A stretch of DNA of 33,304 nucleotides from Baffinella frigidus (Eukaryota > Cryptophyceae > Cryptomonadales > Baffinellaceae). The notes beneath the pieces are model-generated. The model ran no database searches. It saw only the letters and a program-made list of their open reading frames with translations, and had not been told where the DNA came from. Below are positions 332 to 33,304 of the stretch, in pieces. The number at the start of each line of letters is the position of its first letter. Within the stretch, counting starts at the first letter, position 1. The position numbers were made by a program, and so were the translations under genes. Location of the stretch: contig MU646338.1 in the NCBI GenBank assembly GCA_026770585.1, forward strand, positions 657,948 to 691,251, given 5' to 3'.

Positions 332-360
332 GTCGCAGGCGACCCCCAAAGCCCTAACCC

Positions 361-606
361 CCAAAGCCCAAAGGCTTAACCCTAACCCTAAAACCCTAAA
401 ACCTGAACCCTAAACCCTCAACCTCAAACACTAAACACTCGACCCTCAACCTTGGACCCTCAACCCTAAACCCCACACCTCAAACTCCAAAACCCTAACC
501 CTGCACCGTGCACCGTGCACCCTGCACCATGCACCCTGCACCCTGCACCCTGCACCGTGCACCCTAAACCCTAAACCTTAAAACCCTAAGCCCTAATCCC
601 TAAACC
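361..606 (+). repeat. Degenerate CCCTAAA heptamer array in intron
   Basis: Heptamers of the type CCCTAAA, CCCTCAA and CCCTGAA fill the space between the possible exon at 207 and the exon starting at 615. A run near 499-560 has a 7-base CACCCTG/CACCGTG variant. The acceptor CTGCAG at 609-614 follows directly. Confidence 0.8.
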
Positions 607-614
607 CGCTGCAG

Positions 615-5505: not shown

Positions 5506-8500
5506 GTGCGTTATGAGCCCACTCCATTTCCTTTGGCACAGCTAGGAGCCTTGCACCTTCACCCAACCAAAACACCTCAATCCGGAACCTCCATTTGATC
5601 CAGTTCTCAGGTGCGTTCAGAGTTCTGAGTGCAGGTAAGTTCTGAGATAACCCGAAGTGAAACCCGGTGCCTACCAGGTGTTGACTATCGACAGCTGTTG
5701 CGAGTTTGTGCAGGTGCGTTCTGAGTTCACTGAACATAAAATCTCTCAGGTTTGAGAAATGCCGCTTGACTTCCGTGCGTCCACTGGCTCCAACCCCCAC
5801 TGCTCGTCGTCGTGGGTTTGTTCAGACAGAGCTCGGATTGTGCCGCAGCCCGAAACTGTTCAGGCATTTTCGGAGCCGTTGTTTCGCGCCTTTCTGGTCA
5901 CCAAACGACCCGAAGTAATGCTTTCTCTGCAGTCCTTGCTACGGAAGGGCGTGTCGTTGGCATATGTTGTGCGAAATTAGAACCTAAAGGACCTACAGGT
6001 CGCTGCCCCACCGTTGCATCCCCACCGTATCGTCACGTCCAAATAAGCCGTCCATCTATCATAGATAGGCCACACCCACAAGAATTTGCTAGCCACCTCC
6101 TACCGTAGGGCGACCCGTAGGTCATACAATTCGCACGAGGATCCTCGCGAGTCGATGCGGCTCGTAACACGCCCCTGTTGCCAAAACGGTCTTCCACGGA
6201 AGGGCGAGGTGTCCGCCTATCTTGCGAGCGATCAAACCCTAAATGACCTGACCCTCATGCCGCTGAATCAGTGCGAGGCGTCAGAGGAGCGAGCACGAAA
6301 TCGGTTCAAGCAGCTCACGGATTGCTACCAGAAGCTGCGAAGGTGATGCTGCCCTGCTTAGCCACTTAGCAGCCACCAGTGCCTTCGATGATGTGTCCAT
6401 CTAAACGATTCTGGTACAAATTGCAGTTCGTTTCATTGTAAGGGGCTTGAAATGCCGCCCTGTTCCCTCGCAAGTCTGAACCCGGACTGCAGGGTCCCCA
6501 ACTTCAGTCTGAACCCTGCTTACGCATACGTCTGAGCCCGAACCCGAATGTGAGAGTTAGCTCCTTGATAGTCGATGCCGGCTCTTGGAAGATAACCAAA
6601 AACAATGGCGCCCCCTGGTGTGAGCCTCTGCTATACAGACTTATCGTGATGCTCTGAGTGTTACGAGTGGATGGACCGATGGATGGCGAATCCTCTCTAA
6701 TGAATTCGGAAATCAGAAACAACCACTGAAGTGACGCCCTTGAAAAGGTCGCGAAAACCAGGGGAGTGGAAGGTGTCTTGATCAAGACACCATCTGTCTT
6801 GATCAAGACATGATGCGACAACCATTGAAGTAACGCCCTCGAAACGCGCAGTGCACTATCGTCAGGAAAGGACACGACACAGATGGCAAAGGAGGTCAAG
6901 AGCGCGAAGAAGCTCCTCAAGCAAACGCAGGTGCCTTTTCTTCTTTTTCTCTTTGTTTATTACTCTCGAGCCTGGAGATGCGTGGTCCAAACGAACCGGT
7001 GCCCCCACACGAGGATGCTAGAGGTGCCTATTTAAAACCGATGTGCTTTTAAAAGAGGGCATTTGTGTAGTAACTTTCGTTGAATGGTCACGTGACTCTG
7101 CTCACATTGCACAGTCAGGAGGTTACTTTACCTTATCCGGGTACAAATATTTACAACCCCACATGTAAATAGGCCCCTCTAGCATTCTCGGGTGGCCTGT
7201 AGAAGTGTGGGTGGTTTGGGAATTTCAAACTGAGCGGGGAACTCCGACGTAGTCACCCCAGGTATAGATGCGGTGATACTATGATGCGTTCATGTTTGTA
7301 TGCTCTCATGCTGTCTTGACCTTTGTCGAGCGACTTGACCTGTTTCGCCCTTGGACCCGCAGCATGATTGCCTAAACCCGAAACACTAGACCCTAAACCA
7401 TCAACCGCAAACCCTAAACCGTAAGCCCTAAACCGTAAGCCCTAAACACTAAACCCTAAACCCTAAACCCTAAACCGTAAGCCCTAAACACTAAACCCTA
7501 AACCCTAAACCCTAAACCGTAAGCCCTAAACACTAAACCCTAAACCCTAAACCCTAAACCCTAAACCCTATACCCTAAACCCTAAACCCTAAACCCTGAA
7601 CCCTAAACCCTAAACCCTAAACCCTAAACCCTAAACCCTAAACCCTAAACCCTGAACCCTGAACCCTGAACCCTAATCCCCGAGGCAGGTGGCAAAGGAG
7701 AAAGAGGACGAAGGGATGAAGCAGCTTGCCGCGTGGATCGAAAGCGTCACATCAGGTCATGCACAAATCTGCTTTAAATGTCCTGAAATTGCTTTTGAAA
7801 TCATTTTTGGTGCAGACATATCCCCCTTAACCAGGGACGTATTGTAGAAATGGGCTTCGGGCGGAATTTTAGAAGGTCGGGTAAGGAGGTCAGGAACACC
7901 AAAAAATCGATTTTTCCCGTTTTGTGACATGTTATGGTTGGTTGATTCTATTTTAGGCATCTTGCCCATGCCTAAGATAGCATAAAAGTTCATTTTCGAC
8001 GTTTTTCAATCAAATTTCCTGATCTCCTGACCTGACCTTGATTCCGCGCGGAGCACATTTCTACAATAAGGTGCTTACTAACGTAAGCTTTCGGCATTAC
8101 AGGGTGGGTGCACGTCGACCCTGCGCTGCTCGGAAAAGGCAAGAAGCATCGCTTCCTGCAGGTATGGATTCCGTGCAAGGCCATTACGAGCATTCTGATT
8201 TTTTTGAGAGGTTTTGTTTTTGTGCCAAACCCATGCCGTCGCCACCATGAGGAGCAGGACTCCTCATGGTGGTCTTCGAGGGTTTCGTTGGGCCTGGATT
8301 CCAGGGGGGTACGTGACCAAATTGCACCAGAAAAACTCTAAAGTTATTTGCATCAAGGTAAGTAGACTTTTGATGAAAGTTTCGTAGTCCACCGTGTGCT
8401 GTCTTCGCCGTGATGCGTGTTGCTTCTTGCGATGATGGATTCTTTCTGCGTGCGGTGAACAAGATATAACCGGTACACGGTTGTTAGATTTGTCGACATT

Positions 8501-11500
8501 AGTTCCAGCGAGGCGTCGTACCACGCGTGGTGTAGGTTTACATCAAGTCAAAACATGCGGGGCTTGGGCGTTGGACTTGCAATTGCTGCCCATGAGTGCA
8601 AGACGGGGTGCCGATGGGGAGGGGGGGTTCTCACGTTCCACGGTCAAACCTTCAAGACTTTTTGGATTGATGGATTTCTAACATATGCAAACACCTTTCC
8701 CTTCCGCTACAATGAGTCGACAGAACCGTTGGAAGGGTGGTCCACAGGAGGTATGTGAGTTGAACCAAAACGGCTCGCGATCCCACACCGATTCCAGGTT
8801 TGGGTATTGGGTGGGGATTTGCTGAAGGAGTTGGCGGTTCCAGGTGTGGGATGTGATGCCGGATGAAGCGGTGTACGACGCTACCAAAGCCCTCGAGAAG
8901 ACCAAGGTCCTTTCAGACCTTGAGGATTGATTGGATTCACCTTCACTTTCCGTTGTCGGATTGGGCGGAACCGTCTATGGTCTCCGATCTCCTGGCGTTT
9001 TGTTTTACTGCTCGTTCCAACCGAAATGGAAGTCGGCGAGAAGGGACCTCGGCCTGAGTTTATTTTGGCTTGCCCTTCAAAACTATTTAAGAGCAGAAAT
9101 TCACTACAAAAAGTCGAGCCTTAGGGCGAGTTATAATTAGAACTCATGCACAATTGTTTCTTTGAGGATTCGGCCAAATGTCTCTTGTGCCAGGCTTTCA
9201 GAGAGAACACACCTGGACCACTACGCTGACTTTTCAAATAAAATTGGTAGTCCACCGAGTGGTGTGGGTATCCAATCAACCGCATCTTTACGCATCCAAT
9301 GAACTTCGTGCATTTGGGCAGGAGGATTTCGACCGCATCCTGAAAGAAACAAGCGTCGACTCCTCCCTCCTCGCAGACTTCCACGCCGAGCCCTCCTGGA
9401 ACACTCCGCGACTCGGAACGCACCTCCCCGCAAAAGGAGTGTTGATGGCGGGTGGGGGTGCCGGCGGTGCGGGGAACCTGTCGCTTGAGGAGCTGATGCG
9501 GCGCGCTGCTGAGGTGAACCCTTCACCGTTCCGCGCAGTGGTAGCGTTTGAGGATGAGGAACACTTGCCGGGGCAGCGCGCGGGGGGCGCCCGTCTTTGT
9601 TGGAAGTAATCAAACCCGAAGGAACCTAAACAACCGGGGATGACAGGCGGCTGGGATCGTGCGGCATCGGGCCGCATTTGATGCAGGCGTGGCGTTAGTC
9701 AATAACCATCTCCCTCTATCAGGTTCGGATCGATGCACCGAAGAAAAAGGAGGGGCTGCGAAAAGAGAAAAGAGGGAATGCGGTGCCTGGGTGGGTGGCG
9801 GAAGCGTTGGTGGACGTGCGGAAGCAGTTCGAGGCCGTGCAGAAAGTCGAAGTCCCGCGCAACTGGACGAACAAGGTAAGAGCTTTTTTTACCGCACGTT
9901 CCCTGTAATGTACACCTGGTGTACTACACGAGTCACACCTGCCTGCGGTCCACCATTCTAGACCGTGTACAACGACGCGAGTAGGCTGTTGCGGATCTGA
10001 AAGGGGGTAAGAACGGACACCCTGATTCCGGCGTCGACCTGAGTCCTGCGTTCCGTAGCACCCTACGGTATTGCATACAGTAGCACCCTACGAAATGTCG
10101 GAATTTGGTCGACGCCGGAATTAGTTCGTCCACCCTTAGCGCTCTGTCCTCCCACACGAGGCTACCTATGCGAACAGAATAAATGTCGATTGTAAACGTG
10201 TGTAGTAATTTTCAGATCAAAAGCAGTGACTTTACACAGGTCCGACCGCTCAGCGGGCGGAAACGTGATCATTTGCCCACAAAATTTTAAAAGTCCGTTT
10301 TATTCTGTTCGCCTGGGTAGCCTCGTGTGGTCGGCCTGAAGTGCTCTCCCTCCTTGCAGGGGCCGAACTCGGTTGCGTCGCTTGAGGTGGAGGAGGATCA
10401 CGGGTTGCGCTGCATGGTGCAGGTCTTTCGCTCTCTCTCTCTATATCTCTCTCTCTCTCTCTCTCTTTTTCTCTCTTGCTCTCTCGCTCTCTATCTGTCT
10501 GTCTCTATATATTTCTCGCTCTCTCTCTCTCTTTATCTGTCTCTCGTGTTGGTGACTGCAGTGACCCTCCCCCCGGTTGTGAGTTCACAATTTTCTTCTC
10601 GCACGCCTTCTCGCTATAGTGAGAAAACGTGCTCTTTGCAGAAACGGCCTTGTTGATCTTCAAGAGTTTATAGTATAACGGACTGAAAACCGGGTAGTAA
10701 GGCCTACGGTAGGCCGTAGGCCCCCCAGGACCCGATTTTTTGTATGAGCCCCCCTAGGCCCCTACGGTCTACCGTAGGCAATACTGTAGGCCTAACCACC
10801 CCGTTTTCAGTCCGTTACCCTGTTAGATTGGTTTGATCCCGCCATCCCCCTTCTGTCGGAGGGTTCGATCGTAACGGTCCAGGGGACGATCCACAGGCGT
10901 TGCTTGAACATGAAATTGCAGAGAGCATGTCTCCAGCCCGCAGACGCACTCTAGACCCTAAACTTGAAACCCTAAACCCCAACTGTAAACCATAAACCAT
11001 AAACCATAAACCATAAACCATAAACCATAAACCATAAACCATAAACCACCACATCTGCAGGCGTTCATGCGGCAGACGCAGGGCTGCGAGAAGTCGCAGC
11101 ACTGCACGCACGGGCGGAAGATGCATCACTGCAAAGTTGTCAAGATCGAAAGGTGAGGTTTGCAGGGCTGCAGTCCCCGCAGGGTGCTGTGGAATAACGA
11201 AGATAAGTTGATGCTGAAATTAGGGTGCCCAACACATCACATTCCTCCACCCGTAGACACGCATGCAGGTACACCGCCATAACAGTTTATTTGATTTTAG
11301 GGTTCGGGGTTGGCTGAAGGGTCGATGTGGGTGGCTTTCCAGGGTGGAGAACTACCATCTCTACAAGCTGTATGAAATGAAGAAGGCGCAAATCAAAGCG
11401 TGCCTCGGGCCCAAGACGCGCGCGTCGCTCTCAGGCAGCACCAACCAGCATCAAGGACTGGGGGCGTCGCTCGATCCGTCCATCAACGAGTTCAGGCTGT

Positions 11501-12839
11501 TTCACGGCACGGAGCGATCGATTGCAAGGTCAGAAGTGACCCCCTCCGCCTGGGGTTGCAAGGTCGGAACGGGGCGTTGCTTGGGTGGGTGCTTCTCGGC
11601 ACCTGCATCCTCGCTCGGAACTTTCAAATGAGTTAAAGTGACCCACTTTACGGGGTTGACTGTCTCGTAACTTTCAACCGAATTGAACTAACTTAGAACG
11701 GCTCATTGGCGCAGATCTATCGTATCGCTATTTTGAGGCTAATATAGCACATTCCACCCTTACCACAGCACAGACCGGTGCTCAAAAACGTATCTGTTTC
11801 TGCATCAGGTCGATCATTGCAGCACACGGATTCGATGAGCGCTGCGCGTCTTTCAAGGGGCTCTATGGCGCCGAGACTTACTTCGCAGACCGCACCCTTT
11901 TTAAATGTCGACGGTAGGCGTTTTGTTTGGAGCTTGTCACGTGGCTACACGTAAAGCGTGTAGCCACGTGACCAAACATATGAAAATTACTACACAATGA
12001 TCACCTGTACAGCTCCTCGGGTTTTCAACAGGGTGTTTGATCCGCCCGGTGTTGCAGGTCGATTATTGCAGCACACGGGTTCGACGAGCGCTGTGCATCC
12101 CTCGGGGGGCTCTATGGCGCCGGGACTTACTTCGCTGACTGTGCGTGCAAGTCGCAACAGTACGCCGTACCTCATCAGGTGCACTCCTTTCTCCCTTTAC
12201 GACCTTTGGGGCTGATTCGACCCCGCCATTGCCGGACACCTCGCCCGTACGAAGTCGGACTCGGCAGAACCGTGTAGGGGCCCGCACACCGTCTGAGCTT
12301 TCCACGGCTCTGCGTTGCGTATAAGAAATGGTGCTACTTCGGGGGACAACCTGATGCAGCCCTGGGTCCAGGCGCGTGAACCCGCGTGGGGACCGCGTCA
12401 ACATGGTGGGGGGTATCAGCATCACATGGATGGATTCACATGGCTGGCAAACAGATGTCAGGATGCCATTACCATGGCATCCTGACACGCGGGACAATTC
12501 AACGACGCCGGGTGCGTGGGACTCTATGCGGTGCTGCCCCTAAACTATACACCCTCGCCCCAAACCCTCACATAAACCCTGAACCCTCTACCTTCACAGG
12601 ACGAAACCTTCACGATGCTCATCAGCCGCGTGACGATGGGGGGAGCGTATCCAACGACGCGTCAGCACGTGGACCAACGCCGCCCCCCCGACAACCCGGA
12701 CACCCCAGGGCGGCCATTCGACTCGATTTTCGCGCTCTCGGGGAGGGCGAATGGCGGGAAGCAGCAGCATAATGAGTATGTGGTGTTCGCCTCTGCGCAA
12801 GCGTACCCTGAGTATTTGATCACCTACACGTTGGGCTGA
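5377..12839 (+). CDS. Poly(ADP-ribose) polymerase (PARP) family gene, about 16 exons
   Basis: The product should transfer ADP-ribose from NAD+ to protein targets. Proposed exons: 5377-5505 (ATG 5377), 5678-5713, possibly 6272-6342, 6883-6930, 7689-7755, 8103-8161, 8331-8357, 8724-8750, 8844-8906, 9322-9513, 9723-9875, 10360-10422, 11061-11152, 11343-11528, 11809-11913, 12058-12178 and 12600-12839. Phases agree from 6883 to the TGA at 12837-12839. The catalytic half shows VPRNW (9723 exon), KIERVENYHLYKLYEMKKAQI, FRLFHGT (triad His), GLYGAGTYFA (triad Tyr) and HNEYVVF with YPEYLITY (triad Glu, C-terminus), the order typical of PARPs; Glu is compatible with polymer synthesis. The N-terminal half is charged and not recognised; no BRCT, WGR or macro domain was confirmed. 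The start and the 5678 and 6272 exons are uncertain, the latter not fitting the phase of 6883. Confidence 0.82.
5678..5713 (+). CDS. Small duplicated exon encoding VLTIDSCCEFVQ
   Basis: This 36-bp phase 0-0 exon lies between ACCAG and CAG|GTGCGT. Its last nine residues, IDSCCEFVQ, and the following donor bases match the end of the exon at 5377-5505, so it is a partial tandem copy. Being a multiple of three, it can be included or skipped without frame change. It could also be a relic that is never spliced in. Confidence 0.4.
7003..7195. mobile_element. MITE-like hairpin, TIR CCACACGAGGATGCTAGAGG
   Basis: The left arm CCACACGAGGATGCTAGAGG followed by TGCCTATTTAAA pairs with the right arm TGTAAATAGG-CCCTCTAGCATTCTCGGGTGG. 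Copies are diverged at several bases. It sits in the intron between 6930 and 7689. Its outermost CCACACGAGG matches the outer end of the element at 10152-10330, though the inner arms differ. Confidence 0.75.
7376..7684 (+). repeat. CCCTAAA heptamer array in PARP intron
   Basis: About 300 bp of largely perfect AAACCCT heptamers, including a higher-order unit with AAACCGTAAGCCCTAAACACT repeated three to four times near 7410-7550, ends just before the acceptor GGCAG of exon 7689-7755. The higher-order unit shows that blocks of several heptamers are duplicated together. Confidence 0.95.
7832..8078. mobile_element. Large inverted-repeat element, arms TATTGTAGAAATG
   Basis: The left arm (GTATTGTAGAAATGGGCT, then CGGAATT and AGGTCGGGTAAGGAGGTCAGG) pairs with the right arm that ends CATTTCTACAATAAG. 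A short inner palindrome around 7950-7980 carries TTAGGCAT/ATGCCTAA. It is AT-richer than the surroundings and fills most of the intron between exons 7689-7755 and 8103-8161. Confidence 0.75.
8232..8272. repeat. Short hairpin CCACCATGAGGAG/CTCCTCATGGTGG
   Basis: A 13-bp perfect stem with a short loop lies in the intron between exons 8103-8161 and 8331-8357. It is non-coding in the PARP model. Confidence 0.65.
9322..9513 (+). CDS. PARP gene exon with Gly-rich linker
   Basis: A 64-codon phase 0-0 exon from GGGCAG|GAG to GAG|GTGAAC encodes EDFDRILKETSVDSSLLADF, a Gly/Ala linker (GGGAGGAGN) and LSLEELMRRAAE. The frame stays open to 9609, so a later donor is possible, but GAG|GTGAAC is the best consensus and keeps phase with exon 9723. 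Confidence 0.65.
9723..9875 (+). CDS. PARP gene exon leading into the catalytic domain
   Basis: A 51-codon phase 0-0 exon lies between TATCAG and AAG|GTAAGA. It is strongly basic at its start (DAPKKKEGLRKEKRG), a possible nuclear targeting or DNA/RNA contact patch, and ends KVEVPRNWTNK. A P-x-x-W near the start of the fold is typical of many PARP catalytic domains. Confidence 0.75.
10006..10138. mobile_element. MITE-like hairpin, TIR family TAAGGGTGGACGAACTAATTCC, copy 1
   Basis: The left arm TAAGAACGGACACCCTGATT followed by CCGGCGTCGACC pairs with the right arm ending CCACCCTTA. The inside has a repeated TAGCACCCTACG motif. A second copy lies at 29119-29249. It is in the large intron between 9875 and 10360, directly beside another element. 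Confidence 0.8.
10152..10330. mobile_element. MITE-like hairpin, TIR CCACACGAGGCTACC
   Basis: The left arm CCACACGAGGCTACC, then GCGAACAGAATAAA, pairs with TTTATTCTGTTCGCC and GGTAGCCTCGTGTGG. Arms are about 30 bp with few mismatches. The core holds GTGTAGTAATTTTC and ACTTTACACAG, words that recur in other hairpins of the window. It ends 29 bp before the acceptor of exon 10360-10422. Confidence 0.85.
10360..10422 (+). CDS. PARP exon at start of catalytic fold
   Basis: The 63-bp phase 0-0 exon (TTGCAG to CAG|GTCTTT) encodes GPNSVASLEVEEDHGLRCMV. The pattern V-x-L-x-x-x-x-x-EY/DH-x-x-V preceding a F-x-x-T helix matches the early strand and helix of PARP domains. An alternative exon at 9962 upstream has an in-frame stop. 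Confidence 0.65.
10427..10545 (+). repeat. CT-rich microsatellite
   Basis: An interrupted (CT)n tract begins five bases into the intron after exon 10360-10422, in the pyrimidine-rich strand sense of the transcript. Confidence 0.9.
10676..10817. mobile_element. MITE-like hairpin, TIR TAACGGACTGAAAAC
   Basis: TAACGGACTGAAAACCGGG pairs with CCCGTTTTCAGTCCGTTA. Nested pairs of CCTACGGTAGG type (GGCCTACGGTAG and CTACCGTAGG) lie inside, like other 'GTAGGGCC' hairpins in the window. It is in the intron between exons 10360-10422 and 11061-11152. Confidence 0.85.
10960..11048 (+). repeat. AAACCAT heptamer array in PARP intron
   Basis: A short CCCTAAA stretch is followed by about nine perfect AAACCAT units (near 10986-11048), a homogenised one-base variant of the telomere-like heptamer. 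The acceptor CTGCAG of exon 11061 follows within 12 bp. Confidence 0.9.
11061..11152 (+). CDS. PARP catalytic exon with Cys/His cluster
   Basis: The exon encodes AFMRQTQGCEKSQHCTH and GRKMHHCKVVKIE, ending in a split AG|G arginine codon shared with exon 11343. F-x-x-T and V-x-K-I-E-R are typical PARP positions. Between them sits an unusual cluster of Cys and His (C-x5-C-x-H-x5-H-H-C) that could bind a metal; no such cluster is standard at this place in PARPs known to me. Confidence 0.8.
11343..11528 (+). CDS. PARP catalytic exon with triad histidine
   Basis: The exon reads VENYHLYKLYEMKKAQI, then a polar Ser/Thr/Gln-rich loop, and closes with EFRLFHGTERSIA. The FHGT histidine is the NAD+-binding member of the triad. 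The loop before it (KTRASLSGSTNQHQG) is a low-complexity insert in a position often variable among PARPs. It ends in AG, phase 2. Confidence 0.88.
11809..11913 (+). CDS. Duplicated PARP catalytic exon, upstream copy
   Basis: This copy begins with the same phase and nearly the same bases as exon 12058. It encodes SIIAAHGFDERCASF and KGLYGAETYFADRT, then diverges (LFKCR) and ends at ACG|GTAGGC. It is exactly 35 codons, so using both copies keeps the frame. The Gly before the triad TYFA is Glu here, and the KSQQY segment that normally follows is missing. It may be a cassette exon or a decaying copy. Confidence 0.6.
11936..11972. repeat. Perfect short hairpin between duplicated PARP exons
   Basis: GTCACGTGGCTACAC pairs perfectly with GTGTAGCCACGTGAC around a 7-base loop. 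It lies 23 bp after the donor of the upstream exon copy. The stem contains a CACGTG palindrome. Confidence 0.85.
12058..12178 (+). CDS. PARP catalytic exon with triad tyrosine, downstream copy
   Basis: The exon encodes SIIAAHGFDERCASLGG, GLYGAGTYFAD and CKSQQYAVPHQ, which gives the classic G-x-G-x-YFA followed by K-S-x-x-Y of PARPs. It ends phase 0 at CAG|GTGCAC. The complete motif makes this the functional copy of the duplicated pair. Confidence 0.85.
12465..12486. repeat. Short palindrome CAGGATGCCAT/ATGGCATCCTG
   Basis: An 11-bp perfect inverted repeat with a short spacer lies in the last PARP intron (12179-12599). The rest of that intron is unremarkable, with a short heptamer-like stretch before the acceptor TTCACAG. 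Confidence 0.55.
12600..12839 (+). CDS. Last PARP exon with triad glutamate and stop
   Basis: The exon encodes DETFTMLISRVTMGGAY, a Pro-rich loop (RRPPDNPDTPGRPFDSI) and HNEYVVF...YPEYLITYTLG followed by TGA. The NEY glutamate is the third triad residue, and a short YPEYLI strand is the normal C-terminal end of a PARP. Confidence 0.92.
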   Translation, partial: DETFTMLISRVTMGGAYPTTRQHVDQRRPPDNPDTPGRPFDSIFALSGRANGGKQQHNEYVVFASAQAYPEYLITYTLG

Positions 12840-13926: not shown

Positions 13927-14265
13927 GCAACCTTAAACCCTAAACCCTAAACCCTGAACACTACACCCTACACCCTAAACCCTACACCCTAAAAACCTAA
14001 AGCCTAAAGCCGAAACCCGAAACCCGAAATCCTAAACCCTAAATCCTAAACCCTAAACCTAGTAAACCCTAAACCCTAAACCCCAAACCCTAAACTCTAA
14101 ACCCTAAACCCTGTGCTCAAAACCCTAACCCCTAACCCCTAACCCCTAACCCCTAAACACTCAACACTTAACCCTAAACCCTAAACCCTAAACCCTAAAC
14201 CCTAAACCCTAAACCCTAAACCCTAAACCCTAAACCCTAAACCCTTAATTCTAAACCCTAAAACC
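13927..14265 (+). repeat. CCCTAAA heptamer array
   Basis: An AAACCCT array has variants early on and a run of about eleven perfect units near 14170-14245. Its polarity is that of + strand introns elsewhere in the window, although no flanking exons are firmly identified here. Confidence 0.95.
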
Positions 14266-14341
14266 TACACACAACCTCGAGAGGGGCGGGCAAGGGCATT
14301 TTGCGGCACGTCAATGTAGACAAAGCATGTCGAAAGGAAGC

Positions 14342-22753: not shown

Positions 22754-25700
22754 ATGCGGCGGAGCACTACAGTAGCGGCGCTCGCGACTCTTCACCTTGC
22801 AGCAGTCGCCCTTCTTCTCTTTGCCCCCACGGCAAGCACCCACCACCACCAGCAACCCGCTGCAGCTTATACCTGGATCGGGTACTGTAGTAATTTTCAG
22901 CTACACCGAAGAAATCTCTTCGGTATCTCCCGTCAGCAATTCGAGGTCCCTAGTGTTTCCTACTGTAGGGTCATAGGAAAGATTGTTTTTCCAATAAAAT
23001 ACCCGAATTCTTGCGAGTACCCGGTATAAGCTGCTACGGGTTGCTGGTGGCACCCTCCAGCTGCGCGCTGCGCCCCTCACGCCCTTCTCTCCCACCGACA
23101 CGCAGACACGTCCCTCCCTCACGACAACCGCCCGTGTGCAGGTGGTGTCCGAGTGTCCAGCGGGTGCGATCTCGGCGGGTGATCATCACACCTGCGCCGT
23201 TCTCGCCGACGGGGTTGCCAAGTGCTGGGGGGGAAACTTGTACGGGCAGCTCGGGTACGGCGACACACGACAGCGCGGGGACGGGGCGGGGGAGATGGGC
23301 TCGGGGCTGCCGGCGATCAACGTCGGGGCGGGGCGGACGGTGGTGTCGATCTCGACAGGCTATTACCACTCGTGTGTCGTGCTGGACAACGGGGTCCTGA
23401 CCCCTACACAATAAACCATAATCCATACACCATCAACCGTAAACCGTGAACCCAAAACCCAAAACCATACATCATACACCATAAACCATAAACCATACAC
23501 CATACACCATACACCATACACCATACACCCTCAACCCTTAACCTAAACCCTACACCCTAAACCCTGAACCCTCAACCCTCAACCCTAAACCTTGAACCAG
23601 GTCGCCAAGTGCTGGGGGGACAACCGTTTCGGGCAGCTCGGGTACGGCGACACGGAAGATCGGGGGGACGATGCGGGGGAAATGGGCACGAGTCTCCCGG
23701 CGATCGACGTGGGGTTTGGGCGGACGGTTTTGTCAATCGCGGCGGGCGACGACCACACGTGTGTCGTTCTGGACAACGGGGTCCTAACCCTAAACCCTAA
23801 ACCCCAAACCCTGAACCCTAATCCCTAATCCCTCAACCATAAACCCTGAACCTAAACCCGAAACTCTAAATCCTGAACCCTGAGCCCTATACCCTAAACC
23901 CTAAACCCCAAACCAGGTCGCCAAATGCTTCGGGGACAACTCCTACTACCAGCTCGGGTACGCCGACGGAGGAGATCGGGGGGACGGGGCGGGGGAGATG
24001 GGTGCGAGTCTTCCGGCGATCGACTTGGGGCAGGTTGTGGTATCAATCTCGGCTGGGGATTTGCACACGTGCGCGGTGCTTTCCGACAGGTCTGCCCGGT
24101 GCTGGGGCAAAAACGACGTCGGGCAGCTCGGGTATGGCGACACAACATCGCGCGCGGCCTTGGTGTGGGACGGGGCGAGGCTGTCGGCGATCGACCTGGG
24201 ACGGGAGGTGATGTCGATCTCGGCCGGCTCGTCTCACACGTGTGTTGTGCTTATCAACGGCGACGCCAAATGCTTCGGGTACAACTATTACGGCCAGCTC
24301 GGGTACGGCGACACGGCCAACCGAGGTGACTATGAAGACGAGATGGGCTCGGCGCTGTCGGCGATCGCCGTGGGGTCGGGGCGGACGGTGTTGTCGATCT
24401 CGGCGGGTCTCTGGCACACGTGTGTCGTGCTGGACAACGGGGTCCGAAATCCGAACCCTAAACCCTAAACCCTAAACCCTAAACCCTGAACCCTAAACCC
24501 TAAATCCAAAACCCAAAACCCTAAACCCTCAACCCTCAACACTAACCCTAAACCCCAAACCCCAAACCTAAACCCTAAACCCTAAACCCTAAACCCTAAA
24601 CCCCGAACCCTCAACCAGGTCGCCAAATGCTGGGGGGACAACGGGCGCGGTAGGCTCGGGTACGGCGACACGATAAATCGGGGGGACGGGCCAGGGGAGA
24701 TGGGGTGGGCGTTGTCGGAGATCGCCGTGGGGGCGGGGCGGACGGTGGTGTCGATTTCGGCGGGCAGTGCGCACACGTGCGCGCTGCTCGACGATTTGTT
24801 CGTCAAGTGCTGGGGGGCAAACAACGACTGGGGGTCCACCTACGGGCGGCTCGGGTACGGCGACGGGGTAGATCGGGGGGACGAGCCGGGGGAGATGGGC
24901 GATGCTTTACCGGCCGTGTCGCTGTGCGAGACGTGCCCCGCCAACTCGGAGTCCTCCTCGGGCAGCGCGCTGTGCCGGTGCTCGGCGGGGTTCACGGGCG
25001 CGGCCGGTGGGCCGTGCAGCGCGTGCGAGGCGGGGACGTACAAGGCCACGGCGGGTTCGGCGAGCTGCGCGGCGTGCACAGGCTCAAGCTCCGCGGCAGG
25101 GAGCGCGGGCTGCGCGTCGTGTGACGCTGGATACACCAGGGATGACGCTGGGTCCAGCGGCGTGGGAGCAGTTCAGTGCGGAGGGTCGTGCGGATGCTGG
25201 CCCTCGTTGGCGCCGGGCGGCGTCATCTCCGACGGTGCAGGCTCCTACTCCAACTACGATGAGTGCTGGTGGATCATCAGCGGCGACAACCCGTCCGTGA
25301 CGTTCACCTCCTTTGACATTGAACCCACCTTCGACAATCTGTATGTGGAGGAGTGTGGGGACGCGGCGTGCTCCTGGGGCGGCGTGTTGGAGCTTGCGGC
25401 GCTGAGCGGCACCCCTGCGCTGGCGACGTACGCCGCGACGGGGCAGCACCTGCGGGTGCGGTTCACGTCAGACAGCAGCGGGACGCGCAGTGGGTTCACG
25501 GCGAGCTGGCGCTCTGAGCTCTTTGGGCCGTGTGACGCGTGCATGGCGGGGACTTACAAGGCCGTGGCGGGGTCGGGGACCTGCACGGCGTGCCCTTCGC
25601 GATCAAGCTCTGCGGTGGGGAGCGACGAGCGGGCGGACTGCGCGTGTGCCATTGGCTACACGGCGGCCTCGGACGGGGTGTCGTGCGTGGAGTGTTTCGA

Positions 25701-26329
25701 TTGCGATTCGGTAGTCTCCTTCACCGCGACGGTGACCACCATCGATCGCGCAGATTTCACCTCACGAAAGCAGTACGACTACATGGCTGGCGTGGCGCAG
25801 GCCCTTGCGGTCGCGCCAGCGAGGGTGGCCATCGCGTCGATCACGGATCCATCCTCGCGCCGGCTGCTTGCCGTCTCCGTGTTGACGAAAGTGACGGTAG
25901 CTCCCACACCCTCTCCGCCCTGCCGTGACTCTGCCAGCTCTCTCTGCAGTGCCTTGCATGCTTTCCTCTGTCGTGGAGCGCAGGCGAACAGGGAATGCGG
26001 GCGGCTGAGTAGGGGCGCCGCAGGTCCCGAAGGACAAGGCGGCGGGCGTGGCTGCCTTGGTCACGGCCGCGAACCTCAACCGCGCGCTCGCTTCCAGGAC
26101 GGCTTCCGGGGCGTCAGATATCTCCGTCTTGGTGGTCTCGACACCAGAGATTCTCGACCCGGAGACCGCAGGCAGAATCAGCATTGTCGTGCTGGTTCTC
26201 GTTCCCATCGGGGGCGCGGCCTTCCTCCTCGCTTTAGCTGTCATGTCCTACTACGGCCACAAGTCCAGGAGGGCGCAGCAAGATCAGTTCGTGGGACCGG
26301 TGCGCATCCCGCCCCGCCCCGCCCAATGA
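22754..26329 (+). CDS. Predicted surface protein: seven RCC1-like blades, Cys-rich repeats, CUB, transmembrane helix
   Basis: Exons: 22754 to about 22945, 23142-23393, 23601-23780, 23917-24441, 24619-25896, 26024-26329 (TGA 26327-26329); all junctions are phase 0. The start encodes MRRSTTVAALATLHLAAVAL with LLLFAPTAS, a good signal peptide. Seven blades of the RCC1/BLIP-II type follow, each with ISAG-x-x-HTCxVLxxG and KCWGxNxxGQLGYGDT, enough for one closed propeller. Then come ephrin-receptor-like Cys repeats (CPANSESSSGSALCRCSAGF, CSACEAGTYKA), a CUB-like domain (about 25177-25510; GSYSNYDECWWIISG, LRVRFTSDSSGTRSGF), another Cys repeat, and a segment with VSFTATVTTIDRADF and SSRRLLAVSVLTKVTV. 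A membrane helix (ISIVVLVLVPIGGAAFLLAL) and a short basic tail end it. Likely a type I surface receptor or adhesin-like protein; ligand unknown. Exon 1's 3' end is uncertain because it lies in a hairpin. Confidence 0.85.
22846..23050. mobile_element. Inverted-repeat element overlapping the signal-peptide exon
   Basis: CCACCAGCAACCCGCTGCAG with CTTATACC (22846-22873) is the inverse of GGTATAAGCTGC and CGGGTTGCTGGTGG (23022-23050), with a two-base mismatch, and GTAC lies just inside both arms. The inside contains GTAGTAATTTTCAGC, a word seen in other hairpins here. The left arm overlaps the bases encoding HHHQQPAA of the RCC1-like gene. Confidence 0.8.
23142..23393 (+). CDS. RCC1-like exon, blade 1
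   Basis: 84 codons, VVSECPAGAISAGDHHTCAV to SCVVLDNG. It ends GACAACGGG|GTCCTG, the same place in the repeat as the next two exon ends. Confidence 0.9.
23401..23600 (+). repeat. Heptamer array forming RCC1-like intron
   Basis: The 207-bp intron is composed almost wholly of AAACCAT, ACACCAT and CCCTAAA heptamers between GGG|GTCCTG and CCAG|GTCGCC. Confidence 0.92.
23601..23780 (+). CDS. RCC1-like exon, blade 2
   Basis: 60 codons, exactly one repeat: VAKCWGDNRFGQLGYGDT to HTCVVLDNG. Phase 0 at both ends, so the exon equals one propeller blade. Confidence 0.92.
23783..23916 (+). repeat. Heptamer array forming RCC1-like intron
   Basis: CCCTAAA, CCCTGAA and CCCTAAT units fill the whole 136-bp intron (23781-23916); donor GTCCTAACCCTAAACCC is itself part of the heptamer pattern. 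Confidence 0.93.
23917..24441 (+). CDS. RCC1-like exon, blades 3-5
   Basis: 175 codons holding three repeats: VAKCFGDNSYYQLGYADG, SARCWGKNDVGQLGYGDT and DAKCFGYNYYGQLGYGDT. It ends at the same GACAACGGG|GTCC junction. Confidence 0.92.
24446..24618 (+). repeat. Heptamer array forming RCC1-like intron
   Basis: The 177-bp intron 24442-24618 is AAACCCT heptamers throughout with a few AAACCCC and CAACCCT variants, from GTCCGAAATCCGAACCC to CAACCAG. Confidence 0.93.
24619..25896 (+). CDS. RCC1-like gene exon: blades 6-7, Cys repeats, CUB
   Basis: 426 codons. Blades VAKCWGDNGRGRLGYGDT and FVKCWGANNDWGSTYGRLGY are followed by Cys-rich repeats, a CUB-like domain with four cysteines (CGGSCGCW, DEC, EECGDAAC) and a further Cys repeat. 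Ends ACG|GTAGCT. GC content is clearly higher than in the introns. Confidence 0.9.
26024..26329 (+). CDS. RCC1-like gene last exon with membrane helix
   Basis: From GCAG|GTCCCG the exon encodes VPKDKAAGVAALVTAANLNR, STPEILDPE, a hydrophobic helix of about 23 residues and a basic tail (YYGHKSRRAQQDQF) ending with PRPAQ. Positive charge after the helix fits a cytoplasmic tail. Confidence 0.88.
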   Translation, partial: VPKDKAAGVAALVTAANLNRALASRTASGASDISVLVVSTPEILDPETAGRISIVVLVLVPIGGAAFLLALAVMSYYGHKSRRAQQDQFVGPVRIPPRPAQ

Positions 26330-27255: not shown

Positions 27256-27560
27256 TGGTGAACCCGAAACCCGAAACCCGAAACCCGAAACCTTAAACCC
27301 TATACCATGTACCCGAAACCCGAAACCCGAAACCCGAAACCTTAAACCCTATACCATGTACCCGAAACCCGAAACCCGAAACCCGAAACCCGAAACCCTA
27401 TACCCTGTACCCGTACCCCTAAACCCGAAACCTAAGACCCGAAACCCGAACCTCTCAACCCTAAGCCCTAAGCCCTAACCCCCAAACCCTAAACCCTAAA
27501 CCCTAATCCCCAAACCCTGAACCCTAAACCCTGAACCCTAAACCCCAAACCCTGAATCCT
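27256..27560 (+). repeat. AAACCCG / CCCTAAA heptamer array
   Basis: It begins with homogeneous AAACCCG units in three blocks, each ending AAACCCTATACC(A/C)TGTACC, and shifts to CCCTAAA and CCCTGAA. The higher-order blocks of about 60 bp are repeated nearly unchanged. Confidence 0.95.
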
Positions 27561-27623
27561 CAACCATTGACCCATCCCCAGACCCCAACGCTAAATGCCA
27601 ACCCCCAGACACACGCGGCGCAG

Positions 27624-30465
27624 GAGGACTTGGAACTTGCGGCGGCGATGCGCGCATCCCTGGCCGACCAGGTGTGTGTCCACAGCCCGCGCCCCGAGAC
27701 CTCCTGAACCATGGCCTCGAGGACAGTGTCCGTTGCCTCCTGGGAGGCGATGCGCGCATCCCTGGCCGACCAGGTCTTCTTCCTCTTCTTCATGTTGGTG
27801 TTGGTGTGGGTGTCGGTGTTGGTGTTCTGCTTCTTCTTTTTCTTTTCTTGTTCGTCTTCTTCTTACTCTCGAGATAACTCCTATATTCGCCCTTACGCCT
27901 TGAGTTGAGCTGGGTGATACAAACGTCTACGCGCCTTAAGAACGAGCCCGCCTCGGAGACGACGCACGACCGACCAGGTGTGTGTTCACAGCCCGCACCC
28001 CGAGACCTCCTGAACCATGGCCTCGAGGACAGTGTCCACTGCCTCCCGGGACATCCGCGAGGCTTTGGTTCCGGAGGTCGGGATCTCCCGCCCTGGGGGT
28101 GTGTGCCCAGGGCCGTTGCGACACGTGCTCGCTCGCGTCCGCGACTCGGTGCAGTTTGCCGTGTTTTGCACTCTATGGCCGATCAGGGGTCAAACCTCAG
28201 GTGTGATGGTCTTTTGTTTAGCCAGCTGTGGGGGTAAGGGTTAGGTTCTTTTTATTTAGCCAGCTGTATGGCGGGATCTGGCGTACAGGTGGTAAACCCT
28301 AGACCCCAAATTCTAAACCCTAAACCCTCAATTCTAAACCCTAAACCCTAAACCCTAAACCCTAAACCCTAAACCCTAAACCCTAAACCCTAAACCCTAA
28401 ACCCTAAACCCTAAACCCTAAACACCAAAACCCTAAACCCTAAACCCTAAACCCTGAACCCTGAACCCCAAACCCTAAACCCTGAACCCTGAACCCTGCA
28501 CCCTAAACCCCAAACCCTAAACAACCTAGACCCTAGACCCTAGACCCTAGACCCTAGACCTTAGACCCTAGACCCCAAACCCCAAACCCAAACCCAAACC
28601 CTAACCCCGAAAGTGTAAATCCTTTTCCATGAACCCTGAACACCGAACCCCAAACCCTCAGCGGTGCTTGGTCAGCTGAGTGGTGAAAGGAGGTGTAGAC
28701 TGTAGGGTGTGGGGTTTAGGGTCTGACTGGTCCTTAACAACGCACCGGTATACGCACCACTAAAATAAAATTAAAATCAGGCCTAGCGTCCCAACGGCAA
28801 GCTTATCTCCAAGAGCTAAGGACCACCCTTATCCGGGGAAACCTATTTTTCTTTAGTTTGATGGTAAGAAAAATTACTACACAATTCGTTTTTATTAGTA
28901 ATATTAAAGTATTTGTGTAGTAGTTTTCCTTGCCATCAAACTAAAGAAAAATAGGTTCCCCCGGATAAACCCTAGGGGTGGGTTGTGTCCTTGGTCGCGA
29001 GTAACCCCTGCAGAGTAACCCCTGTTCGCATTCACTGGCCAGTGCTGTGCACCCTGTCACGACCGAATTCAAGCACCCTGCTTTTGCGCTCGACCAAACA
29101 GGGATAGGTGCATTCGAGTAAGGGTGGCCGACCTAATTCCACCACCAACCTAATTCCCGCAATCCTCAACAACCTACCGCATTGCATACCGTACCACCCC
29201 ACGAAACGCCGTATTTAACTTGGCGCCGGAATTAGGCCGTCCACCCTCAACCCCTGCACCACCGCAGATGGGCCAGCAGCAACACCCCCAGCCGCCAGCC
29301 GCTAGCCAAATGCCGCCCGCGCGCTTCTTCGGCGCGCAGCTGGACGACGGACCGCAGCAGCCGGGCGAGGAGGGCCAGCCTACTGCGCAGCCTCCGGCCC
29401 AGCAGGCGCAGGACCTGCCTGCCCCGGGCGGTGTGCTGCAGGCGCAGGGGCGGGATGCCCCGGCTGTTCTGCAGCCAGCGTTCGAGGACGTTGCGGCGCA
29501 GGGCCCGCCTGCCCCGCTCACGCCTCCCGGTGCGTTGTCCCCCCCCTGAACCAAACACTTGACCCTGGACCCTACATCTTAACCCTTAACCCTGGACCCT
29601 GGACCCTACATCCTAACCCTTAACCCTTAACCCTGGACCCTACACTCTGAATCATGAATCCTGAACCCTGAACCCTGAACCCTGAGACCTGAATCCTAAA
29701 TCTTAAACCCTAAACCCTAAACCCTGACCCAGAACCCAGAACACTTAACCCCACCAACCCCCTGTGCGTTGCTCCCGGGGGGCCTACACCTCTCGAGGCC
29801 GCACAATGTGTTATTTTCACAACTAGTTTGGATCTGAAAGACTCAAGGTCGCGCGCCGTTTATTCTTGACCCCAACCCCCCTACACTGTGCAGTGCTCAC
29901 GCACCCCCGGAATTTCCGGGGGGGGTCTCAGTTCAAAATCATACAACCAAATTCAGAAATAACCCTAAGTCCAGCATGGAGTGGCAATAGGCCTATTTAT
30001 ATGAGCCTAGGACCCCTTAGAGATTGCGTGTGCCCTTATTCGCGAGTAACCCCTGTATGAGATCAATAAACGGAGCTATCCCCTAGCAGGGGCGGCGAGG
30101 TCCACCTTGAAGCACTTGCAACCGTCGATAATTTAGTGCCAGTATCGTCAACGTTTGCCATTGTTGAAGTGAGTTTGCGGGGCCAACAGGTCTCAAGACC
30201 GCCGTCTCCCCATGCAGCTGCCGCGAGGCCCAACTCCCGCAAATTCTGCGTAGTTTTTCCTTATTTTTGCGTAGCCTCTGCATATGATCCGTAATATTTT
30301 TGTCACCCCCTTGCATGTGGGGCCAGGCGCAACCCCTTCGTGTGGTTCTTAAAAGTTTTTTGCCGTTTCCTTGCAGGTGGGGTCGAGCGCAACTTCTGCA
30401 ATCTCTGCGGGGCCAGGCTTGCCCCGGAAGCCGCCTTCTGCGGGGGCTGCGGCGGGAAGATCTGA
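27624..30465 (+). CDS. UIM-like motif, Gln/Pro-rich linker and C-terminal zinc ribbon (partial gene model)
   Basis: Exons supported: 27624-27671 (EDLELAAAMRASLADQ), 27747-27773 (AMRASLADQ), 29268-29529 and 30377-30465 (TGA 30463-30465). The first fits the ubiquitin-interacting-motif pattern hydrophobic-x-x-A-x-x-x-S-x-x-acidic. Exon 29268 encodes MGQQQHPQPPAASQMPP, ARFFGAQLDDG and an Ala/Gln/Pro-rich chain. The last exon gives FCNLCGARLAPEAAFCGGCG, two CxxCG knuckles of a small zinc ribbon, and stops. The 29529/30377 junction splits a glycine codon and keeps frame. Together this suggests a ubiquitin-linked adaptor, which is inference. The 5' end and the link across the 28290-28600 array are unproven; exon 29268 begins with ATG just after GCAG and could be a start. 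Confidence 0.55.
27660..28045 (+). repeat. Direct duplication of an 80-bp exon/intron segment
   Basis: CGACCAGGTGTGTGTCCACA through CTCCTGAACCATGGCCTCGA to GTCCGTTGCCTCC (27664-27742) is repeated at 27968-28046 with few changes. The first copy is followed by a second UIM-like exon, the second is not. Confidence 0.88.
27775..27870 (+). repeat. CTT / GTTGGT low-complexity tract
   Basis: Runs of CTTCTTC flank TTGGTGTTGGTGTGGGTGTC-type repeats in the intron after the second UIM-like exon. Confidence 0.8.
28296..28600 (+). repeat. CCCTAAA heptamer array
   Basis: A run of about thirteen perfect AAACCCT units (near 28333-28425) is followed by CCCTGAA variants and then a homogeneous CCCTAGA block (near 28530-28572). 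Confidence 0.96.
28829..28968. mobile_element. MITE-like long hairpin, TIR TTATCCGGGG
   Basis: TTATCCGGGGAAACCTATTT and TCTTTAGTTTGATGG pair nearly perfectly with CCATCAAACTAAAGA and AAATAGGTTCCCCCGGATAA. The loop is AT-rich with AATTACTACACAA/TTTGTGTAGTAGTTTT. Weaker pairing continues outward (AAGGACCACCC and GGGTGGGTTGTGTCCTT), so the element may be 28815-29000. Confidence 0.9.
29119..29249. mobile_element. MITE-like element, TIR TAAGGGTGG-CCGACCTAATTCC, copy 2
   Basis: Related to 10006-10138: it shares TAAGGGTGG ends, CTAATTCC, GCATTGCATACCGTACCACC and GGCGCCGGAATTAGGCCGTC. The right end lies 18 bp before the start of exon 29268. Confidence 0.78.
29268..29529 (+). CDS. Gln/Pro/Ala-rich exon
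   Basis: 87 codons plus one base, from ACCGCAG|ATGGGC to CCCG|GTGCGT. The product is low complexity with QPPA and QAQ runs, probably a flexible linker. High GC and lack of stops separate it from the surrounding repeat DNA. Confidence 0.7.
29548..29755 (+). repeat. CCCTGGA / CCCTAAA heptamer array
   Basis: TTAACCCTGGACCCTGGACC blocks pass into CCCTGAA and CCCTAAA units in the intron between exons 29268-29529 and 30377-30465. Confidence 0.92.
29895..29960 (+). repeat. Dispersed repeat GGGGTCTCAGT-CATATAACC, copy 1
   Basis: A C/G hairpin (CCCCCGGAATTTCCGGGGGG) is followed by GTCTCAGTTCAAAATCATAC and AACCAAATTCAG. A related copy (CCCCGCTCCGGGGGAGG, then GGGTCTCAGTACATATCATA and TAACCGCATTTGAA) lies at 31205-31268. 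Confidence 0.7.
30377..30465 (+). CDS. Zinc-ribbon terminal exon
   Basis: After TTGCAG the exon completes a Gly codon and encodes GVERNFCNLCGARLAPEAAF and CGGCGGKI, then TGA. Spacing C-x2-C-x10-C-x2-C is typical of short zinc-ribbon domains found at protein ends. Confidence 0.82.
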
Positions 30466-30493: not shown

Positions 30494-30609
30494 TATCCCT
30501 TAAGTGCCTAGCAGGCTCATACGCCCTACGGTAGGGCCCTAGGACCTGCCTAGGGCGAGTTAGGGCGAATATTCACCCTAATATTTATCATATGGGCACT
30601 TGAGGGATA
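30494..30609. mobile_element. MITE-like hairpin, TIR TATCCCTTAAGTG, copy 1
   Basis: TATCCCTTAAGTGCC and the inverse GGGCACTTGAGGGATA bound nested CGCCCTACGGTAGGGCCCTA and GGGCGAATATTCACCCTAAT palindromes. It follows the zinc-ribbon stop by 28 bp. Confidence 0.88.
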
Positions 30610-32307: not shown

Positions 32308-32322
32308 CTGAGCATTCCGGTT

Positions 32323-33240
32323 AAGGGTTGAGGGTTTAGCGTTTAAGGTTTAGGGTTTGGGTTCTAGGGTTTCGGGTTTAGGGTTTTAGGGTTTGAGGTT
32401 TTGGGTTCAGGGTTCAGGGTTGAGGTTTTAGGATTTGGGGTTTATTCAAGGTGGGTGGTTTAGGGCTTAGGGTGCAGTGTTTCGGGTTTCGGGTTTCGGG
32501 TTCAGGGTTCAGATTTTCTGGTTTCGGGTTTATAGTTTTGGTTTTAGGGTTTCGGGTTTAGGGTTCAGAGTTTAGGGTTCGGGTGTTTAGGTTTCAGGGT
32601 TTAGGGTTTAGGATTCAGGGTTCAGGGTTTGGGTGTTGGGGTATCCCTTAAGTGACCAACGGGCGAATAATCGCCCGTGGAAGCCCTAGGCAAGTCCTAG
32701 GGCCCTACGGTAGGGCGTATAAGCCTACTAGTCACTTAAGGGATAGGGTTTAGGGTTTGGGATTTCGGGTTCAGTGTTTAGGGTTTAGGGTTTCGGGTTT
32801 GGGGTGAGGGCTGAGGGTTGAGGGTTGAGGGTTGACGGTTGATGGTTGAGGGTTTGTGGTTGAGGGTTTAGGGTTCAGGGGTCAGGGTCTGGGGTGAAGG
32901 GTGAAGGGTTGAGGGTTTAGAGTTGAGGTTTTTAGGTGTGAGGGTTTGGGGTTCAGGGTTGAGGGTTGAGGGTTGAGTGTTGAAGGTCTGGGGTTTAGGG
33001 TTCAGGGTCTCGGGTTTAGGGTTCAGGATTTAGGGTTTAGGGTTCAGGGGTTTGGGGTGTAGGGTGTAGGGTGTAAAGTTTAGGGTTCAGGGTTCAGGGT
33101 TGTGAGTTTAGGGTTCGGGTTTCGGGTTAAGAGTTTTGGGTTTAGGGGCTGAAGGAGTTTGGTTTCGGGATTAGGGTTCTAGGTTTGAGGTTCAGGGTTT
33201 AGGGTTTCGGGTTTTGGGGTTAGTGTTGAGCGTGTAGGGT

Positions 33241-33300
<60 letters not shown>

Positions 33301-33304
33301 GGTT
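32323..33304 (-). repeat. TTTAGGG / GAGGGTT heptamer array, reversed polarity
   Basis: Nearly 1 kb of GGTTTAG, GGTTCAG, GGTTGAG and GGTTTCG heptamers on the + strand, i.e. CCCTAAA-type on the minus strand. It ends in about nine perfect GAGGGTT units. It directly precedes the minus-strand exon in transcript direction, so it is most likely its upstream intron. Confidence 0.96.
32642..32745. mobile_element. MITE-like hairpin, TIR TATCCCTTAAGTG, copy 2
   Basis: TATCCCTTAAGTGACC and its inverse CACTTAAGGGATA bound nested GGGCGAATAATCGCCC and CCCTACGGTAGGGCG palindromes. It is inserted cleanly inside the heptamer array. Confidence 0.92.

What the first reader, a model, noticed from the sequence alone, without database searches (positions are those of the whole stretch)
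23394..24618. Introns made almost entirely of telomere-like heptamers
Three consecutive introns of the RCC1-like gene (207, 136 and 177 bp) are tandem CCCTAAA/CCCTGAA/AAACCAT heptamers from donor to acceptor; similar arrays occupy introns of gene A, the PARP gene and the zinc-ribbon gene. Interstitial telomere repeats are known, but their use as the routine body of spliceosomal introns is unusual. It suggests a genome-wide process, such as telomerase-like addition, break repair or introner spread, that makes introns from heptamers.
Basis: seen in the sequence. Interest (0 to 1): 0.85.

Follow-up and report, generated by a model that had tools for sequence, protein, structure and literature searches.

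The report
Introns built from telomere-like repeats
In a large algal genome, probably from a cryptophyte, many genes are interrupted by introns that consist largely of a degenerate telomere-type seven-letter repeat, mostly on the strand that carries few false splice signals, which suggests how telomere-like DNA can become routine intron filler.

Summary
The three RCC1 introns (207, 136 and 177 nt) are heptamer arrays from GT to AG, and removing them restores one open RCC1 frame. This is genome-wide: arrays make up 11,444 of 55,656 letters in 14 sampled loci from 8 places (20.6%; 0 in a resampled control). The plant-type 21-mer has 53,120 matches, the vertebrate-type one 204. Of nine introns chosen blind, bracketed by chaperonin or kinesin exons, five hold an array and four are at least half array. 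In genes whose strand is known from protein homology, 30 of 34 arrays have the C-rich strand in sense (p = 6e-6; 25 of 29 outside the window). That strand has few GT or AG and hardly folds. Best reading: telomere-type repeat DNA seeded and expanded in introns of a cryptophyte-like alga, filtered by splicing. The three RCC1 introns probably descend from one intron copied with the RCC1 unit. That heptamers create introns is not shown: no inverted repeats, no clear target duplications, and 4 of 9 blind introns lack arrays. Removal was inferred from restored frames, not RNA. Ten paper searches found no description.

The parts
23394..23600 (+). RCC1 intron 1, 207 nt, heptamer array from GT to AG (CCATACA/CCATAAA-rich, then CCCTAAA/CCCTCAA)
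23781..23916 (+). RCC1 intron 2, 136 nt, heptamer array from GT to AG
24442..24618 (+). RCC1 intron 3, 177 nt, heptamer array; its only GT is the donor and its only AG the acceptor
23142..23393 (+). RCC1-like exon ending LDNG; its start after ..GTGCAG is inferred from the sequence
23601..23780 (+). RCC1-like exon VAKCWGDN...LDNG
23917..24441 (+). RCC1-like exon holding two repeat junctions without an intron
24619..25900 (+). RCC1-like last repeats, Ephrin_rec_like and CUB region (3' end of the exon approximate)
345..607 (+). heptamer array in gene A, followed by GCTGCAG|GCC
785..957 (+). heptamer array in gene A
1150..1219 (+). heptamer array in gene A, followed by CTCGCGCAG|GTA
4916..4997 (+). 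heptamer array in gene A, followed by AATTGCAG|GTGG
7371..7680 (+). heptamer array followed by CGAGGCAG|GTGG
10948..11047 (+). heptamer array in the intron before a PARP-gene exon
12538..12592 (+). heptamer array filling only the 3' part of the last PARP intron
27261..27610 (+). heptamer array in the putative zinc-ribbon gene region
28293..28658 (+). heptamer array in the putative zinc-ribbon gene region
29544..29760 (+). heptamer array in the putative zinc-ribbon gene region
13929..14270 (+). heptamer array outside the genes that I recognised; no [CT]AG within 45 nt after it
32319..33304 (-). heptamer arrays with the C-rich strand on minus, split by a small inverted-repeat element

Best explanation
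The introns are ordinary GT-AG spliceosomal introns whose bodies have been taken over by a degenerate plant-type telomere minisatellite, (CCCTAAA)n read on the sense strand, which has spread through the nuclear genome of a cryptophyte-like alga. Shown: arrays run from donor to acceptor, removal restores conserved proteins, arrays are about a fifth of the sampled letters, and they sit mostly C-rich-sense in introns of conserved genes. Inferred mechanism: (1) short telomere-type tracts are seeded at interior sites, by telomerase extension of broken ends, capture of telomere DNA or recombination; (2) they grow and drift by slippage and unequal exchange; (3) selection on splicing keeps those that sit in introns with the C-rich strand in sense, because that strand has few internal GT or AG and hardly folds, so that a long array is a near-neutral spacer, whereas the other strand brings about one GT and 0.7 AG per unit and folds strongly; (4) in the RCC1 gene one such intron was multiplied together with the RCC1 repeat unit.
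For: Exact boundaries and restored frame. 53,120 plant-type 21-mer matches against 27 for its reversed control, and 204 for the vertebrate-type repeat against 6 for its control. 11,444 of 55,656 letters. Nine blind introns: 5 hold arrays, 4 are at least half array; one 1,702-nt kinesin intron is 85% array and runs into CCTAAACAG|GAGCGGG before the P-loop exon. 30 of 34 arrays, 5,421 against 260 nt, C-rich in sense in genes of known strand; 25 of 29 outside the window (p 1e-4). CAG within 12 nt of the C-rich 3' end in 60 of 105 arrays against 22 of 105 at the G-rich end, p 2.5e-6. In 59 arrays (9,601 letters) the C-rich strand has AG 114 and GT 56; the other strand has AG 993 and GT 1,376. Sense folding 0.0, -0.8 and 0.0 kcal/mol, antisense -28.4, -22.1 and -34.1; with quadruplexes allowed, sense unchanged, antisense -36.9, -32.2 and -45.0. 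A>G variants that make an AG are rare: A5G 59, A6G 6, A7G 9. 18 perfect copies in a row occur at only three places, so arrays are mostly short and degenerate. Among the 120 best hits to a C-rich reading, the seven with an organism name are five Baffinella frigidus and two Rhodomonas salina proteins; none of the 120 best for a G-rich reading has an organism name (p 0.014; the two queries are from different loci).
Against: Four arrays in genes of known strand are G-rich in sense, two of them in introns of an RCC1 paralogue (L034). A coding-potential classifier, blind to arrays but trained partly on genes of the window and of L032, L034 and L035, put only 84 of 114 arrays (115 tested, one tie) C-rich-sense, and 16 of 19 confident ones, several of which lie in its training genes. 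GT upstream of the C-rich 5' end is only weakly in excess, 71 against 58 of 105, p 0.09. Arrays in one gene are not independent. A bias set at insertion by transcription would look the same as selection. The A5G excess could be a property of the repeat. No RNA was available. Three contig ends with letters have no array in their last or first 800 bases, so the species' own telomere was not seen.
Confidence: 0.6

Rival explanations
1. Heptamer arrays create introns: a telomere-type tract inserted into an exon brings or completes the splice sites (GT at its 5' edge, AACC(C)AG|G at its 3' edge) and is spliced from the start, as introners are.
For: Arrays fill whole introns with nothing else between GT and AG. 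Donor GT directly abuts the array in several cases, such as GTCCTAACCC, GTCAACCCTA and GTAAACCCC. In 43 of 105 arrays a CAG lies within about 6 nt of the array's 3' end. Introns of RCC1 paralogues lie at neighbouring but different positions, which suggests gains within the repeat. GGTC is found at both ends of the RCC1 introns and of one Ulp1 intron.
Against: Repeated AGGT-like ends are what any GT-AG intron in a proto-splice site shows. No terminal inverted repeats. Arrays are partial in some introns (PARP 12538-12592, L049) and absent in others (4 of 9 blind introns). One array of the window lies outside the genes that I recognised (13929-14270). The three RCC1 introns are best explained by unit duplication.
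Confidence: 0.22
2. The strand bias comes from the way arrays arise (telomerase priming or strand breaks linked to transcription), not from selection on splicing; arrays are then neutral intron filler.
For: A telomerase and recombination model tied to transcription was proposed for plant telo boxes (PMC3022908, passages seen). Neighbouring arrays share strand in 77 of 100 pairs.
Against: AG-making variants A6G and A7G (6 and 9) are much rarer than A5G (59), as splicing selection would give; but this is also open to other causes.
Confidence: 0.12
3. The arrays have a function in the cell, for example in splicing regulation, chromatin or binding of telomere proteins along genes.
For: Their number and recurring unit; telo boxes act in plant promoters (PMC3022908, abstract and passages).
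Against: Lengths and unit orders vary; the fetched pieces of other members of the same families have no arrays (L032, L033, L035, L036, L045).
Confidence: 0.05
4. The arrays are not spliced introns but insertions that disable the genes, or assembly noise.
For: No RNA evidence; many stretches of the genome are withheld.
Against: Removal restores conserved domains in RCC1, PARP and Ulp1, and the arrays separate conserved chaperonin and kinesin exons; GT and AG abut the RCC1 arrays; related gene models and unnamed proteins show the same exon-to-array passages.
Confidence: 0.01

Closest known systems
Interstitial telomeric sequences
   Same: Degenerate copies of a telomere repeat (here CCCTAAA/TTTAGGG) inside chromosomes
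   Different: Here they form about a fifth of the sampled letters and the body of many introns, mostly in one orientation; the known cases that I recall are occasional blocks or short tracts
Telo boxes of plants (PMC3022908, abstract and passages seen)
   Same: Same heptamer, gene-associated, telomerase-based spread proposed
   Different: Telo boxes are short motifs in 5' regions; here arrays of up to 1,339 nt are intron bodies
Introners (Amoebophrya introner elements, PMC7789003, passages seen; PMC9860276, only a word count seen)
   Same: Repeated DNA in many introns of a protist or alga
   Different: The Amoebophrya elements have inverted repeats and direct repeats; these arrays show no inverted repeats, and direct repeats cannot be told from splice consensus
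Repeat-rich introns of Amorphochlora amoebiformis (PMC12730881, abstract and passages seen)
   Same: Simple repeats in many lineage-specific introns of an intron-rich alga
   Different: There [AT]n in half of 26 introns; here telomere-type heptamers with strand bias
Simple repeats and minisatellites in introns (general, recalled)
   Same: Growth by slippage is the likely cause
   Different: One telomere-type family dominates, with no other sequence between donor and acceptor in some introns

Membership tests
Interstitial telomeric sequence | Tandem telomere-type unit away from chromosome ends | tested here: met
   Window lies at 658-691 kb of a 1,278,729-base contig; TRF period 7, CCCTAAA-type
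Interstitial telomeric sequence | Unit equals the species' own terminal repeat | tested here: inconclusive
   Three 800-base contig ends with letters hold no array, a fourth was withheld; cryptomonads are reported to have TTTAGGG (PMC7046594, passage)
Spliceosomal GT-AG intron | GT...AG ends whose removal restores a conserved frame | tested here: met
   for the three RCC1 introns
Spliceosomal GT-AG intron | Removed from transcripts | not testable with these tools
   No RNA data
Introner | Terminal inverted repeats | tested here: not met
   The three introns hold only heptamers between GT and AG, and the sense strand hardly folds
Introner | Target-site duplication at the insertion | tested here: inconclusive
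   GGTC at both ends of the RCC1 introns, but this cannot be told from AG|GT consensus
Introner | Many near-identical copies at unrelated intron positions | tested here: inconclusive
   Same unit at many positions, but orders and lengths differ
Telo box | Short motif in promoter or 5' region | tested here: not met
   Arrays of up to 1,339 nt between coding exons

The most novel reading that the evidence does not exclude
Telomere-type heptamer arrays are an intron-making and intron-growing element in cryptophytes: arrays inserted C-rich-sense behave as ready-made introns, completing GT and AG at their edges, so that chromosome-end DNA has supplied much of a lineage's introns without any transposase.
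Probability: 0.22. Interest if true: 0.9.

Novelty: new variant of a known kind. Interest (0 to 1): 0.74.

Why it matters
It gives a genome in which telomere-type repeat DNA is a main material of introns, with a built-in test: the two strands of one repeat differ sharply in splice signals, so the orientation of a very large number of arrays could measure how strongly splicing filters inserted DNA. It may also bear on the large genomes and broken gene models of cryptophytes, since some gene models of Baffinella run into arrays.

Tried and rejected
Tried: (a) Is the genome the published Baffinella? (b) Target duplications: given up, because AG|GT ends mimic them. (c) Branch points: CT[AG]A[CT] motifs number only 1, 3 and 1 in the three introns, so I make no claim that heptamers supply branch points. 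(d) Reversed-motif control of the detector: it also scored on the arrays, since it resembles the motif; replaced by Markov resampling. (e) Species telomere: no array in three 800-base contig ends, and none of the three places is near a contig start. (f) Papers: ten searches (listings seen) gave no report of telomere-type introns; in the Baffinella genome paper the word count gives 'intron' 0 and 'telomer' 0 (PMC9756366, passages only); in PMC9860276 'telomer' and 'cryptophyt' 0. Passages of PMC11453091 added nothing to the case. The library lacks most subscription journals. (g) HSP70 (PF00012), PF13540, PF02902 and PF00183 searches of the genome did not complete.

Limits of the samples: of 19 loci only 5 had letters (L015, L017, L023, L026, L027). 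The 14-locus sample adds three contig ends (a fourth was withheld) and six stretches, each chosen next to a stretch that had shown letters, so the 14 loci come from 8 places. Withheld stretches may not be random. The nine blind introns are all the pairs of matches on one strand whose model ends adjoin; their ends are match ends, not exact splice sites. In one of the four counted as without an array (C62:783521-783726) a 23-nt tract scores 15, below my threshold of 18. L048 and L049 were fetched too but left out of the nine, because their matches overlap or do not adjoin; they are in the 34 of the strand count.

Full report
What was claimed and checked. Three consecutive introns of an RCC1-like gene were said to be heptamer arrays from donor to acceptor. 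They are: 23394-23600, 23781-23916 and 24442-24618, lengths 207, 136 and 177. The detector, a wraparound alignment to (CCCTAAA)n, covers all but the terminal GT and AG. Their scores of 119, 98 and 137 stand against a best of 37 in 300 shuffles of intron 1. With the introns removed the gene reads in one frame through seven RCC1_2 stretches, Ephrin_rec_like and CUB.

The window and its genome. The window lies at 657,948-691,251 of contig 36, which is 1,278,729 bases long, in a genome of 382,457,362 bases in 1,364 contigs. A search with the RCC1 protein lists one Baffinella (cryptophyte) protein among 120 best hits whose other names are bacterial where names are given; three local alignments to it have 41-45% identity. 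A search with an opposite reading, from another locus, gives 0 of 120 with an organism name (Fisher p 0.014). Several hits show conserved domains passing into the array: a phosphatase P-loop (P0151, Baffinella; my reading of the motif), RCC1 (P0138), WD40 (P0139), and ankyrin repeats on both sides of an array (P0160). That the R. salina entries stem from transcripts is recalled, not from a call.

How common. The 21-mer (CCCTAAA)3 has 27,288 forward and 25,832 reverse matches, against 14 and 13 for the reversed pattern (overlapping matches). The vertebrate-type 21-mer has 85 and 119, against 0 and 6. Eighteen perfect copies in a row occur at three places only, on contigs 32, 350 and 365 (13 overlapping matches). 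In 14 sampled loci from 8 places, with 55,656 letters, arrays with a score of 18 or more cover 11,444 letters; in Markov-resampled non-array sequence of the same loci they cover none. The sample is limited by withheld stretches.

A blind sample of introns. Exons of TCP-1 type chaperonins (PF00118) and kinesins (PF00225) gave nine gaps between adjoining matches. Array content at score 18 or more: 73%, 70%, 30%, 0, 0, 0, 0, 85% and 69%. So five of nine hold an array, and four of nine are at least half array. The 1,702-nt kinesin intron carries a 1,339-nt array up to the acceptor before its P-loop exon. A Ulp1-type protease gene (PF02902, E 1.5e-16 on exons that I joined) on the minus strand of L038 has seven C-rich-sense arrays and one opposite.

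Strand. In genes whose strand is known from protein homology, 30 arrays (5,421 nt) are C-rich in sense and 4 (260 nt) are not, p 6e-6; without the window's five arrays it is 25 against 4, p 1e-4. Arrays within a gene are not independent. Two of the four are in introns of an RCC1 paralogue (L034). Without any gene call, CAG lies within 12 nt of the 3' end of the C-rich strand in 60 of 105 arrays and of the G-rich strand in 22 of 105 (p 2.5e-6); GT upstream is less clear, 71 against 58 (p 0.09). A coding-potential classifier, trained partly on the same genes, gave 84 of 114, and 16 of 19 confident cases. Neighbouring arrays share strand in 77 of 100 pairs.

Why that strand. In 59 arrays with 9,601 letters the C-rich strand has 114 AG and 56 GT; the other strand has 993 AG and 1,376 GT (read as CT and AC). 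Intron 3 has no GT or AG other than its own ends; intron 1 has no other AG but two internal GT; intron 2 has one extra AG and no extra GT. The sense RNAs have folding energies of 0.0, -0.8 and 0.0 kcal/mol, the antisense ones -28.4, -22.1 and -34.1; allowing quadruplexes leaves the sense values unchanged and lowers the antisense ones to -36.9, -32.2 and -45.0. Single variants that would create AG are rare (A6G 6, A7G 9) compared with A5G (59). These facts fit a filter by splicing; they do not exclude a biased origin.

One intron or three. The three RCC1 introns sit at the same point of the repeat unit, in exons 68-83% identical over 60 nt on either side, and their unit orders are slightly more alike than shuffled orders (1, 0 and 1 of 200 shuffles reach the score). 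Fetched pieces of the RCC1 paralogues L032, L033 and L034 have introns near, but not at, this point, with other contents; L032, L033, L035 and L036 have no arrays. The simplest reading is one intron multiplied with the repeat unit.

Origin. The heptamer is the complement of TTTAGGG, which a review says arose in cryptomonads among others (PMC7046594, passage). A telomerase and recombination model exists for plant telo boxes (PMC3022908, passages). Whether telomerase seeded these arrays cannot be tested here. Introner hallmarks (inverted repeats and direct repeats, as described in PMC7789003, passages) were not seen or could not be told apart for the arrays, although other introns of the window carry inverted-repeat elements.

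Novelty. Ten paper searches gave no description of introns made of telomere-type repeats (listings). The Baffinella genome paper (PMC9756366, passages) reports 534.5 Mb with 41% repeats, and a word count of its main text finds neither 'intron' nor 'telomer'. I rate this a new variant of a known kind: interstitial telomere repeats, here as a common intron body.

Noticed in passing
window 2212-2413 and 2724-2945: Two copies of an inverted-repeat element (arms 62 and 68 nt, 95-96% complementary, alike between copies) between gene A exons: possible MITE or introner.
   Followed up: partly
window 22846-23050: Inverted-repeat element (31-nt arms, 90%) between a possible signal-peptide exon and the first RCC1 exon.
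   Followed up: partly
window 32642-32745 and about 30498-30613: TATCCCTTAAGTG... inverted-repeat element (28-nt arms, 79%) inserted in a heptamer array; by eye a similar sequence at about 30.5 kb and related ends beside arrays in L001 and L040.
   Followed up: partly
window 16084-16205: Inverted-repeat element with 38-nt arms, 92% complementary.
   Followed up: no
window 11809-11915 and 12058-12180: Near-copy of a PARP catalytic exon (SIIAAHGFDERCAS...) in tandem, perhaps a decayed or alternative exon.
   Followed up: no
L038 minus strand, about 1,360-2,000 nt from its start: A Ulp1 exon (..IFIPVCDKLHWMLFV) occurs several times in tandem, and L048 shows overlapping kinesin exon matches: tandem exon copies may be common.
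   Followed up: no
window 17575-18930: Long open reading frame without a Pfam match, no array inside.
   Followed up: partly
L043, first 700 bases; window 10431-10545: Long (CT)n runs, pyrimidines in sense, in the same genes as heptamer arrays.
   Followed up: no
RCC1 introns and L043, L047: Several donors look weak by the usual consensus (GTCCTG, GTCCTA, GTCCGA, GTCAAC, GTCCCT); U1 RNA of this genome was not examined.
   Followed up: no
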